64,000 nt of DNA. Source: Photobacterium sp. SKA34 (GTDB lineage: Bacteria; Pseudomonadota; Gammaproteobacteria; Enterobacterales; Vibrionaceae). The stretch spans positions 82,406-146,405 of the forward strand of contig NZ_CH724145.1 of NCBI RefSeq assembly GCF_000153325.1. Reading direction: 5' to 3'. The notes beneath the pieces are model-generated. The model worked only from the letters and a program-made list of their open reading frames with translations, did no database searches and had not been told where the DNA came from. The translations under genes were made by a program, and so were the position numbers. Positions 44,490 through 47,592 of this stretch are shown here, piece by piece. How positions within the stretch are numbered: the first letter of the stretch is position 1; each line of letters begins with the position of its first letter.

Positions 44490-44871
44490 TAAAAAAGAAC
44501 GGGCGCAACTTTCGTTGCGCCCTATGGCTTCACATGCAGCATTCCCGCTACTATGGTGCTCCCTGCCATCAGTCCTTGATATACTAAAGTCCCCAATATA
44601 GCTCCAAACTCTATCCTAGAGTTGCTCTTCGGTAGTTCCTTGACCCATCAATATTCCAATATTGACTCTCTCTTCCGTCCTGGAGGTGTCCTTTACTTCA
44701 TCCTAAAGCTGTTCCTGACTTCATCAATGAAGATTAATCCCTACTCAATCCTAGAGTGTTCCATGTCATCCAGACCAGTAAATATCCTATTTACCTCACT
44801 ACATCCTGTAGTTTTCCCTGCACAATCCTTGTTAGACAGCTCCGCTGTCTATCCTCATCCTGAGGTAGCTA
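44490..44871 (-). ncRNA. csrB: CsrB-family small RNA, copy 1, 3' fragment (split by IS3 element)
   Basis: RNA that sequesters the CsrA regulator. Read on the minus strand it shows many GGA-loop hairpins, for example ACTCTAGGATTGAGT and ACTACAGGATGTAGT, the block AAAGGACACCTCCAGGA shared with E. coli CsrB, then GCAGGGAGCACC...GTAGCGGGAATGCTGC near the 3' end. It ends in the terminator GGGCGCAAC/GTTGCGCCC plus a T run. The 5' part lies at 46130-46172 beyond the insertion. It is more diverged than copies 2 and 3 are from each other. Confidence 0.9.
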
Positions 44872-44879
44872 TGTAGTGG

Positions 44880-45752
44880 TCAACTAAAATTGGCCACGGT
44901 TTTAGAGTTTTCCCAATATAATCGTTCTGATTCGTTGGGAGTTAGGCCGCCATTATATTGATGCGGCCTGAGTTGACAGTAATACCCGATAATGTAGCGG
45001 ATGATCTCTTGTTGAGCTTCAGCAAAACTACGATAACCCACTGTTGGCACCCATTCGGTCTTTAAGCTTCTAAAGAAACGCTCCATTGGTGCATTATCCC
45101 AGCAATTTCCTCGGCGAGATAAACTCTGTTTTATCTTAAAACGCCACAGTAATTGACGGTACTTTCGACTTGTATAGTGGCTACCTTGATCGCTGTGGAA
45201 CATGACGCCTTTCGGCTTACCACGCGACTCATAAGCCATTGAAAGAGCTTTGCCTGTCAGACTGGAATCAGGTGATAAAGACATCGACCAACCAATCACT
45301 TTGCGGGCAAAAAGATCAATAACAACCGCTAAATACATCCAGCGATTTCCTGTCCAAATATACGTAACATCACCAACCCAAACTTCATTTGGGGCGGTAA
45401 CAGCAAACTGTCGGCCCAAGTGATTTGGAACCTCAACATGTTCTTGAGAAGCCTTTCTGTATCGATGCTTTGGCTGTTGGCAACTGACTAAACCAAGCTC
45501 TCTCATGAGTTTTGTTGCTCGGTATCGGCTCAGTTTTAAACCCTGATTTGTGACTATATCTGCAATAGTCCTCGCTCCCGCAGAGGCGTTGCTTGCTGCG
45601 TGGGCCTCACTAACTAAGCTGCGAAGTTTGACTGTTTCCGCCCTAATCGCTGTTGGACGCTTTAGCCAATAGTTATAACTACTTCGATGAACATTGAAGA
45701 CTTCGCATAATGTTTTTACGCTATAGCTCTGCTTGAGTTTCTTGATCATCAA
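44880..45752 (-). CDS. IS3-family transposase OrfB (catalytic)
   Basis: DDE transposase with an HTH_21 segment ([21 protein letters not shown]) and an rve catalytic core: D in [25 protein letters not shown] in [12 protein letters not shown] in [13 protein letters not shown] with the K/R seven residues on. It has 290 residues counted from TTG 45752, but it is normally made as an OrfAB fusion. A run of seven A followed by G (about 45787-45794) sits in the overlap and allows a -1 frameshift from orfA into this frame. Confidence 0.95.
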
Positions 45753-46057
45753 GAATTGTTCAGTGAGTCCGACATCAACAGAGCCGTGGCTTTTTTTAAT
45801 ATTTCATTATGCTCTTCAAGACGAGCTAACTTCTTTTTTAATTCCCGAATTTCTATTTGCTCAGGGGTCATAGGCGAAGCTTTTGGCGTTTTGCCTTGTC
45901 GTTCTTGTTTAAGCTGACGAACCCATTTATCCATCGTGGATTTACCCACATTCATGGCTTGGGCGGCTTCTGCCACTGAGTAATTTTGATCAATCACTAA
46001 CTGTGAAGCCTCGAGCTTGAATTCTGCGCTGAATAGTCGTCTTGTACGATTTGTCAT
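45749..46057 (-). CDS. IS3-family transposase OrfA (DNA-binding)
   Basis: Helix-turn-helix protein (HTH_8/transposase_8 type): [47 protein letters not shown], then a leucine-zipper-like helix [28 protein letters not shown] 46057 (MTNRTRR) follows AGGTGACACT and gives 102 residues. It ends a few codons after the A7G slippery run, overlapping orfB by 4 bp. Confidence 0.93.
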
Positions 46058-46129
46058 AGTGTCACCTGTTAACGTATGAAGTGATGATATCACCTCTAAC
46101 TAAGTGACCAAATTCACTATGCCACTACA

Positions 46130-46172
46130 CTAATCCTTAGCTGTTCCGATCCTAATGTCGTTCCCTTTCGAC
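46130..46172 (-). ncRNA. csrB: CsrB-family small RNA, copy 1, 5' fragment with promoter
   Basis: Minus strand 5' end GTCGAAAGGGAACGAC, comparable to GTCGACAGGG of E. coli CsrB, followed by ATTAGGATCGG and AAGGATTAG. A -10 element TAGTAT lies at 46180-46185, putting the start near 46172. Joining across the IS and removing one CTA restores the hairpin series of the RNA. Confidence 0.8.
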
Positions 46173-46341
46173 AAGGTAGATACTACTAGATTAGTAATAA
46201 TGAACAACACATATATAGATTATGAAAAATAAAGACTCTTTATTAAATCACCAATTGATAATTTAACCATCTGATATTAAATAATTATTTATTTTTAATT
46301 ACTATTTTTACGATTAAAAAAAAGAATTAATCCCACAGTAA

Positions 46342-46359
46342 TGTAAGAGATCTCTTACA
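46342..46359. promoter_or_regulatory. GacA/UvrY/VarA-type activator site for csr copy 1
   Basis: TGTAAGAGATCTCTTACA is a perfect 18-bp palindrome and fits the known TGTAAG...CTTACA site of the GacA/UvrY/VarA response regulators. Its centre is about 178 bp upstream of the predicted RNA start. Confidence 0.88.
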
Positions 46360-46486
46360 AAATAAAGAGATAAAAAGTGATATAGCATAAAAATAAAGAC
46401 AAAATAGAGGGAAGAAAGGTTTTGAATGTTACATTAACGTATGAAAAGAAGTAGAGAAAAGAGATATGAAAAAATCAGAAAGACAT

Positions 46487-46875
46487 AAAAAAAGAGCGGG
46501 CGCGACTTGCGTCGCGCCCTTAGGTCTTACTTGCAGCATTCCCGCTACTATAGTGCTCCCTGCCTCATTCCTTTGACTGCCGATTACTTCAGCATTGTCC
46601 TTGCGCTTCGTCCTGAAGTTGTTCCTTTGGCTATCCTAACCCGTCACCACATCCTGTTATGACTCTCTTCTCCTTCCTGGAGGTGTCCTTTACTTCGTCC
46701 TGAAGTGTTCCTTATGTCATCCTGACTGGTAAACATCCTGCTTACCGAACTCCATCCTAGAGTGTTCCCTTCACAGTCCTTGTTTGATAAACCATCCTAG
46801 CTTATCAACCTCTCATCCTGAGACCACTACTTCCTGTAGTACATTCCTGTTCCGTTTTGTCAGCTCCTTCCGACG
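46487..46875 (-). ncRNA. csrB: CsrB-family small RNA, copy 2
   Basis: Intact RNA of about 389 nt. On the minus strand it begins GTCGGAAGGAGCTGAC and has about 25 GGA motifs, most in small hairpin loops (ACTACAGGAAGTAGT, CTCAGGATGAG, ACTTCAGGACGAAGT). It contains AAAGGACACCTCCAGGA and GCAGGGAGCACTATAGTAGCGGGAATGCTGC-like 3' blocks seen in E. coli CsrB. The terminator is GGGCGCGAC/GTCGCGCCC followed by a T run (46487-46493). A -10 element TAATAT is at 46882-46887. Expected to bind CsrA dimers and relieve their repression of target mRNAs. Confidence 0.93.
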
Positions 46876-47044
46876 CCAATAATATTACGCCAATCACCTT
46901 AATAAACACAGATGCCAAAATACATTTATTTTCTATTAAAAAATAACACAAACACTTTAATAGCCAAAAAAGCTTTAAAATCAGTAGTTTAACAATATAA
47001 AAAAGACATTTTATGTTACTAAAAAGACAGATATCCCACGCTTA

Positions 47045-47062
47045 TGTAAGAGATCTCTCACA
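47045..47062. promoter_or_regulatory. GacA/UvrY/VarA-type activator site for csr copy 2
   Basis: TGTAAGAGATCTCTCACA, one base off the perfect palindrome, centred about 178 bp upstream of the predicted start of copy 2. Confidence 0.85.
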
Positions 47063-47205
47063 AGAAGATAAGAGATTAACGATATAAAAACTGAAATATT
47101 TTTTTATATTTAATCTTTTTACGTATAAATCGACATATACGTCACGCTGTAAAAATAACTTTGGGTATAAAAAGAAGGAAAGGAATAAAGATATTTTCCT
47201 TTAAA

Positions 47206-47592
47206 CAAAAAGAGAGGGCGCGACTTGCGTCGCACCCTTAGGTCTTACTTGCAGCATTCCCGCTACTATAGTGCTCCCTGCCTCATTCCTTTGACTGCCG
47301 ATTCCTTCAGCATTGTCCTTGCGCTTCGTCCTGAAGTTGTTCCTTTGGCTATCCTAACCCGTCACCACATCCTGTTATGACTCTCTTCTCCTTCCTGGAG
47401 GTGTCCTTTACTTCGTCCTGAAGTGTTCCTTTTGTCATCCTGACTAGTAAACATCCTGCTTACCGAACTCTATCCTAGAGTGTTCCCTTAACAGTCCTTG
47501 TTTGATAGACCATCCTAGCCTATCAACCTCTCATCCTGAGAGCACTACATCCTGTAGTATATTCCTGTTCCGTTCTGTCAGCTCCTTCCGAC
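47206..47592 (-). ncRNA. csrB: CsrB-family small RNA, copy 3
   Basis: Intact RNA of about 387 nt, differing from copy 2 at roughly a dozen positions, some of them compensatory in stems (for example ACTACAGGATGTAGT against ACTACAGGAAGTAGT in the loop only). Terminator GGGTGCGAC/GTCGCGCCC with a shorter, interrupted T run (47207-47211), one stem mismatch. The -10 element is TAATCT at 47600-47605. Copies 2 and 3 and their upstream sites are offset by 718 bp throughout, the mark of a tandem duplication. Confidence 0.93.

What the first reader, a model, noticed from the sequence alone, without database searches (positions are those of the whole stretch)
44490..47592. Three CsrB-family small RNAs in a head-to-tail array between yqcC and syd
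The long gene-free region is made of three related units on the minus strand. Each shows the CsrB design: about 25 GGA motifs in small hairpin loops, the AAAGGACACCTCCAGGA block, the GCAGGGAGCAC...GGGAATGCTGC 3' block and a strong terminator. E. coli has one csrB in the same yqcC-syd interval, and V. cholerae uses three Csr RNAs; here all three sit together. This gives gene-dosage control of CsrA at one locus and a ready site for recombination.
Basis: partly seen in the sequence, partly recalled or inferred. Interest (0 to 1): 0.9.

Follow-up and report, generated by a model that had tools for sequence, protein, structure and literature searches.

The report
Triple CsrB RNA array, one IS-split
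A Photobacterium genome carries three copies in a row of the gene for a regulatory sponge RNA called CsrB, one of them split by a jumping gene; such rows are common in the genus, but the copies seem to correct one another and in some relatives they grow and shrink in 50-base building blocks.

Summary
The three CsrB-family units are real: RF00018 at 147.5, 141.8 and 113.8 bits, cut-off 71. They lie head to tail on the minus strand at the locus of E. coli csrB. Each keeps the palindrome TGTRAGAGATCTCTTACA upstream; its only four places in this 5-Mb genome are these three units and the fourth RF00018 hit above cut-off.

Two corrections. The stretch is not gene-free: a 1258-bp IS3-family element (36 full-length copies in the genome) splits unit 3, 43 nt after its inferred start, with a TAG target duplication. 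And the array is not special to this genome: of 43 Photobacterium genomes with an unbroken locus (own included), 28 have three units, 14 two, one has one.

Comparison added more. In many genomes two units are nearly identical over the RNA but not in their flanks, as gene conversion would leave them. In 12 of 51 genomes one or two units carry tandem ~50-nt two-hairpin modules, taking CsrB from ~390 to 929 nt; two ~99%-identical loci differ by 291 nt of repeats. That modular CsrB is the best lead; the window's array itself is ordinary for its genus.

The parts
47205..47592 (-). csrB unit 1, intact, 388 nt, 26 GGA
   Evidence: RF00018 147.5 bits over 47204-47500; unit limits set from UAS spacing, GTCGG start and terminator
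47762..47779 (-). upstream palindrome (UAS) of unit 1, TGTGAGAGATCTCTTACA
   Evidence: 0 expected in shuffles
47215..47238 (-). terminator of unit 1
46487..46874 (-). csrB unit 2, intact, 388 nt, 26 GGA
   Evidence: RF00018 141.8 bits over 46486-46782; limits
47045..47062 (-). upstream palindrome of unit 2
46498..46519 (-). terminator of unit 2
46342..46359 (-). upstream palindrome of unit 3, TGTAAGAGATCTCTTACA, now upstream of the IS
46130..46172 (-). csrB unit 3, 5' piece, 43 nt, 4 GGA
   Evidence: continuous with the 3' piece in five of five relatives aligned
44872..46129 (-). IS3-family insertion sequence, 1258 bp, ends TGTAGTGG.../...CCACTACA, 3-bp target duplication TAG at 46130-46132 and 44869-44871
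   Evidence: 36 full-length and 3 partial copies in the genome
45749..46093 (-). IS orfA
   Evidence: HTH_Tnp_1
44880..45752 (-). IS orfB, DDE transposase
   Evidence: rve; NF033516 IS3 family transposase, 321.5 bits, cut-off 160
44489..44871 (-). csrB unit 3, 3' piece, 383 nt, 24 GGA
   Evidence: RF00018 113.8 bits over 44489-44812
44501..44522 (-). terminator of unit 3

Best explanation
This is the csrB locus of a Photobacterium, amplified to three head-to-tail genes before the near relatives split and later hit by an IS3-family element in the third gene. Units 1 and 2 each make a ~388-nt RNA with about 26 GGA motifs that binds CsrA dimers and lifts their control of target mRNAs; each has its own upstream activator site, promoter region and terminator. 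The split unit 3 no longer makes a normal CsrB: its promoter now points into the transposase genes and its 3' piece, with 24 GGA and the terminator, is cut off from that promoter by 1.26 kb. Shown by sequence: family, order, motifs, IS, target duplication. Inferred: CsrA binding, activation by the UvrY/VarA response regulator, loss of unit 3 function, and gene conversion between units 1 and 2.
For: RF00018 hits; synteny with E. coli csrB; the palindrome is also 5' of E. coli csrB and sits at four places in the genome, those of the four RF00018 hits above cut-off; one CsrA gene in the genome; GGA-in-loop excess over shuffles; IS3 transposase match and TAG duplication; uninterrupted unit 3 in five of five relatives aligned; none of 51 loci from other genomes matches the IS proteins; two or three units at the same locus in 42 of 43 genomes with an unbroken locus. 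Gene conversion: within-genome u1-u2 RNA identity 96.4-97.9% in five relatives and 97.4% in G021, against 90.2-93.0% between the two lineages whatever the position.
Against: No transcript data. In this genome itself the paralogue identity (96.4%) is no higher than that to orthologues (95.9-97.4%), so conversion rests on the wider comparison. In other groups it is not seen: G001/G033 and G012/G024/G045 paralogues are less alike than most or all orthologues. Upstream flanks of G000-type and G021 units are near background identity, so positional orthology between those two is not shown by flanks. A promoter-like match at 44979-44952 inside the IS points at the 3' piece, but such matches are at chance level in the region (11 found, 9.3 expected); so some expression of the 3' piece is not excluded. 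RNA starts were set by me from the GTCG motif near the expected spacing, so the spacing is partly by construction.
Confidence: 0.92

Rival explanations
1. Units 1 and 2 are a recent duplication in this lineage, and the near identity needs no gene conversion.
For: Units 1 and 2 are 96.4% identical over the RNA and pair together in the tree at 98/70 support.
Against: Their upstream flanks are only 78% alike, near the 70-80% seen for paralogue flanks throughout, while the flanks match those of the same position in relatives (79-86% for the 175 bp before the RNA and 92-98% further upstream). Three units at the same places in G002, G003, G039, G041 and G021 make the array older than this lineage.
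Confidence: 0.1
2. The units stay alike because selection holds the RNA sequence, not because they exchange sequence.
For: CsrB is conserved, and in G001/G033 and G012/G024/G045 most or all orthologues are closer than paralogues.
Against: Between lineages the RNA differs by 7-10%, yet within genomes pairs are 96-100% alike in many cases (G018 100%, G025 99.5%, G027 99.2%); G009 and G051 pairs are 96.1 and 98.5% alike within and 90.5-90.9% between. Selection alone would not keep changes shared inside a genome.
Confidence: 0.2
3. Unit 3 remains active: the IS end, or read-through from the csrB promoter across the IS, still makes an RNA with the 24 GGA of the 3' piece.
For: IS genes and csrB share the strand; a CTGTCA-16-TATAAT match lies inside the IS; the 3' piece keeps terminator, conserved blocks and 24 GGA and scores 113.8 bits.
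Against: Promoter-like matches in the region are at chance level, and the -10 letters fall in the coding sequence of the transposase. No expression data.
Confidence: 0.25

Closest known systems
E. coli CsrB (csrB, yqcC-syd interval)
   Same: Locus, strand and neighbours yqcA-truC-yqcC and syd-queF; palindrome upstream; Rfam family RF00018 (E. coli rings as control).
   Different: One gene there, three units here; DUF3549, DUF3301, DUF2789, an unnamed ORF and DUF2310 lie between yqcC and syd here; E. coli csrB shows no tandem repeat by TRF at score 30.
Vibrio csrB1-4 / V. cholerae csrB, csrC, csrD
   Same: Several redundant CsrB genes per genome; PMC6262261 (passages and section 6 read) says Vibrio have 2-4 copies and that V. 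tasmaniensis CsrBs act redundantly.
   Different: That paper puts the Vibrio copies in separate synteny groups; here three are in one array.
Aliivibrio salmonicida csrB2-csrB3 and P. profundum csrB
   Same: PMC6262261 describes csrB3 next to csrB2 as a duplication and cites four putative csrB copies in P. profundum; PMC3505737 (one passage) names PBPRB1150a and b as CsrB.
   Different: In the passages seen no three-unit array, IS insertion, homogenised pair or intragenic module is described. The source cited for P. profundum is not held (that it is Kulkarni 2006 is my recall).
Other tandem sibling sRNAs (PrrF1/2, OmrA/B)
   Same: Neighbouring copies of one sRNA gene; listed as tandem in the table of PMC4211561 (passages read).
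   Different: They pair with mRNAs; that table lists Csr/Rsm organisation as 'Distal' only.

Membership tests
CsrB/RsmB RNA (RF00018) | Match to the covariance model above the curated cut-off | tested here: met
   147.5, 141.8 and 113.8 bits against 71
CsrB/RsmB RNA (RF00018) | Many GGA motifs, often in small hairpin loops | tested here: met
   26 GGA in each intact unit; 12 and 11 in predicted hairpin loops against a shuffle mean of 1.8
CsrB/RsmB RNA (RF00018) | Own transcription unit: upstream activator palindrome and intrinsic terminator | tested here: met
   Palindrome 5' of all three units and terminator after all three; that the palindrome is the UvrY/GacA/VarA site is recalled. In unit 3 the IS separates the two.
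CsrB/RsmB RNA (RF00018) | Partner CsrA in the genome | tested here: met
   One PF02599 hit, 89.6 bits, 65-aa frame
CsrB/RsmB RNA (RF00018) | Binds and titrates CsrA | not testable with these tools
   Needs RNA-protein binding and genetics
CsrB/RsmB RNA (RF00018) | Expression under BarA/UvrY (VarS/VarA) | not tested
   Sensor and regulator genes were not searched; only the DNA site was
CsrB/RsmB RNA (RF00018), unit 3 | Uninterrupted gene | tested here: not met
   1258-bp IS 43 nt after the inferred start; unit 3 is a disrupted member
IS3 family element | orfA/orfB with IS3-type DDE transposase, inverted ends, 3-bp target duplication, multiple copies | tested here: met
   NF033516 321.5 bits for orfB; ends and TAG duplication; 36 full-length copies. 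The 3-bp duplication as typical of IS3 is recalled.

The most novel reading that the evidence does not exclude
Photobacterium csrB is a modular, evolvable protein sponge. A ~50-nt block with two GGA hairpins and single-stranded GGAs is gained and lost inside the gene, so CsrA-binding capacity per RNA is set in steps of about 3-5 GGA, while gene conversion spreads or removes variants across the tandem array. The window's unit 3, which lacks one such block present in five of five aligned relatives and was then or before hit by an IS, is one product of this turnover.
Probability: 0.45. Interest if true: 0.72.

Novelty: new variant of a known kind. Interest (0 to 1): 0.48.

Why it matters
CsrA sponges set the balance of a global regulator, and why bacteria keep several near-identical ones is an open question (raised in PMC6262261). 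A genus with 2-3 copies in one array, copies that look homogenised, an IS knock-out of one copy, and natural RNAs from about 390 to 929 nt gives a ready set of natural variants to test whether sponge number or sponge length is what selection acts on. For this window alone the message is modest: a typical Photobacterium csrB locus with one copy disrupted.

Tried and rejected
Rejected: 'three equal intact genes' (IS in unit 3). Rejected: 'array peculiar to this genome'. Considered: unit 3 decaying after the IS hit; its branch in the tree (0.027) is longer than those of G002, G003, G039 and G041 (0 to 0.0055), but units 1 and 2 of this genome also have long branches (0.023, 0.017), so no conclusion. 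Considered: an IS-borne outward promoter; matches are at chance level. Considered: assembly artefact for long repeats. Expanded units also occur in genomes of two or three contigs (G032 732 nt, G038 638 nt, G050 528 nt), but the 929-nt case comes from a 570-contig draft. MFE folds of the longest RNAs show cross-pairing between modules, so the two-hairpin picture is a local one. Paper searches that led to nothing direct: csrB with concerted evolution (0 papers); csrB with tandem repeat (listing); CsrA, tandem repeats, titration (listing); IS and csrB (listing). Vibrio (the many g12 genomes) could not be compared for array structure because the listing is capped and their hits fell below it.

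Full report
Observation. The minus strand of 44489-47592 holds three matches to Rfam RF00018 (CsrB) at 147.5, 141.8 and 113.8 bits, cut-off 71. Units 1 and 2 are 388 nt each with 26 GGA; dinucleotide shuffles of the same sequences give means of 14.3 and 14.0 and maxima of 23 and 21 in 500. In the predicted fold 12 and 11 GGAs lie in hairpin loops, against a mean of 1.8 and maxima of 5 and 4 in 60 shuffles. All three units carry the conserved 3' blocks and end in a strong terminator. So the features are well beyond chance.

Between 46129 and 44872 lies a 1258-bp element with terminal TGTAGTGG/CCACTACA and a TAG duplication on both sides. Its two frames match HTH_Tnp_1 and rve and, for orfB, the IS3 family transposase model at 321.5 bits, cut-off 160. 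The genome has 36 full-length and 3 partial copies. With the element taken out in the computer, unit 3 lines up with the uninterrupted unit 3 of five of five relatives aligned (G002, G003, G039, G041, G021). The insertion lies 43 nt after the inferred RNA start; the 5' piece has 4 GGA and the 383-nt 3' piece 24. None of the 51 loci fetched from other genomes for this comparison matches the IS proteins at the limits used. The region is therefore two intact csrB genes and one split gene.

Locus. E. coli K-12 csrB lies in the same neighbourhood and orientation: yqcA, truC, yqcC, csrB, syd, queF. In the window DUF3549 and DUF3301 lie between yqcC and the array, and DUF2789, an unnamed ORF and DUF2310 between the array and syd. 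The palindrome TGTRAGNNNNNNCTYACA occurs three times in the window, once upstream of each unit, with none expected, and once in the E. coli stretch, upstream of csrB. The exact form TGTRAGAGATCTCTTACA occurs at four places in the whole 5-Mb genome: the three units and the C7 copy, i.e. the four RF00018 hits above cut-off. I recall this as the UvrY/GacA/VarA site; PMC7652899 (passages) states that phosphorylated UvrY activates csrB transcription. One csrA is present. I did not search for the sensor and regulator genes.

Other Csr RNAs of this genome. C7:1460503-1460801 scores 109.2 bits and C18:58545-58829 41.7, below cut-off. The C18 stretch is a 455-nt GGA-rich unit (24 GGA, shuffle mean 12.6, max 21) without the palindrome within two mismatches in the 3.3 kb examined, near frames that look by eye like EngB/YihA and YihI; E. 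coli csrC lies between yihA and yihI (recalled), so it is probably csrC.

Distribution. RF00018 hits were found in 51 of 52 genomes of the genus (match listing capped). I fetched the array locus, or the best single hit, from 50 other genomes and rescored with a profile of the window units and the flanking proteins. Of 52 genomes, own included: 43 have the locus unbroken on one contig, of which 28 have three units (the window's with the IS), 14 two and 1 one (G047, a partial genome); 6 are cut by contig ends (G004, G020, G023, G034, G046, G048); in G005 and G026 the only hit lies elsewhere; G042 has none. Outside the genus I fetched 12 loci of the same family: 10 have the flanking genes, with two units in six and one in four; G056 has four RF00018 hits in a row and G065 two and a fragment, with none of the flanking genes found nearby. 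The 12 were chosen from the capped listing (143 of 150 genomes with a match), so Vibrio, whose hits fell below it, is not covered.

Homogenisation. In a tree of 126 unit sequences the positions 1, 2 and 3 need 29 changes, least possible 2, shuffled mean 56.6: position predicts relatedness only in part. In 29 genomes I compared one pair of similar units, chosen from the tree: RNA identity 89.7-100%, identity of the 175 bp before the RNA 70-80%, which is about the background of this gapped measure. Where flanks show orthology the contrast is clear: G025 paralogues 99.5% against orthologues 97.1-97.5% while flanks are 73% against 87-95%; G009 and G051 paralogues 96.1 and 98.5% against 90.5-90.9%, flanks 75% against 82-88%. 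G018 units 1 and 3 are identical. Window-type genomes and G021 show 96.4-97.9% and 97.4% inside, 90.2-93.0% between, but there the flanks are near background and do not prove positional orthology. Against: G001/G033 (96.1-96.4% inside, 98.7-99.0% between), G012/G045/G024 (about 90% inside, 91.8-98.7% between) and G017/G030 (about 92% inside, 93-96% between) show no recent exchange. In the window's genome alone (96.4% inside, 95.9-97.4% to orthologues) it cannot be told. I read this as repeated gene conversion limited to the transcribed part, in some lineages.

Modules. Unit lengths cluster near 388 and 438 nt and reach 490, 541, 582-584, 638, 732 and 929 nt; there is also a group at 463-473. 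Tandem Repeats Finder at score 50 finds a period of 48-51 nt in 13 of 126 units, from 12 of 51 genomes, 2.8 to 7.5 copies in one row; the 929-nt unit has two such runs, of 6.3 and about 4.9 copies. The G032 module is read as GCTTCAGGACGAAGT and CCTCTAGGACAGAGG hairpins with linking GGAs. In four related genomes with near-identical units 1 and 3 the middle unit measures 432, 532, 582 and 732 nt, steps of 50 (G031, G018, G011, G032); the loci of the first three are 92.9-97.0% identical to that of G032 over the longest match. The window's own unit 3 lacks a 50-nt block present in five of five aligned relatives. GGA number rises with length (26 at 388 nt, 56 at 732, 68 at 929). Caveat: the 929-nt unit comes from a 570-contig draft; 732, 638 and 528 nt come from genomes of two or three contigs. 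E. coli csrB shows no such repeat.

How it works. Most likely as CsrB does elsewhere: the activated response regulator turns on each unit from its own site; the RNAs bind CsrA through their GGA hairpins and free its targets. Two intact array units, the C7 copy and probably the C18 csrC supply the cell. The split unit's promoter now faces the transposase frames on the same strand, so IS transcription may follow Csr signalling; this is inference.

Known or new. PMC6262261 (passages and section 6) reports 2-4 csrB per Vibrio genome at separate places, four putative copies in P. profundum, and csrB3 next to csrB2 in A. salmonicida. PMC4211561 (passages) tabulates Csr/Rsm siblings as distal. In the searches (open-licence papers only; mostly seen as listings) I met no description of a three-unit array, exchange between csrB copies, or intragenic csrB modules; the four-copy source is not held, so the array in P. 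profundum may be in print.

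Noticed in passing
L067:6226-6960, L072:6240-7170, L073:4856-5493, L062:6224-6807, L045:6013-6594 (relatives): One csrB unit of the array carries tandem ~50-nt two-hairpin GGA modules; CsrB lengths up to 929 nt.
   Followed up: partly
L137 (G056), 5123-7826: Four RF00018 hits in a row in another genus of the family, without the yqcC/syd-side genes nearby.
   Followed up: no
G000:C18:58545-58829 (L005, L087): Weak CsrB hit (41.7 bits), 455-nt GGA-rich unit near EngB/YihA-like and YihI-like frames, probably csrC.
   Followed up: partly
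window 60502-60691 (+): GcvB RNA match, 57 bits, cut-off 42.
   Followed up: no
window 37318-37445 (-): t44 RNA match, 60.9 bits, cut-off 44.
   Followed up: no
L044 (G010), 7192-11165: About 4 kb of extra DNA between the csrB array and DUF3301; content not examined.
   Followed up: no
window 44834-44856 region of unit 3: The hairpin AGACAGCGGAGCTGTCT differs from relatives' AGATAG...CTATCT on both sides, keeping the pair (alignment); it may predate the IS.
   Followed up: no
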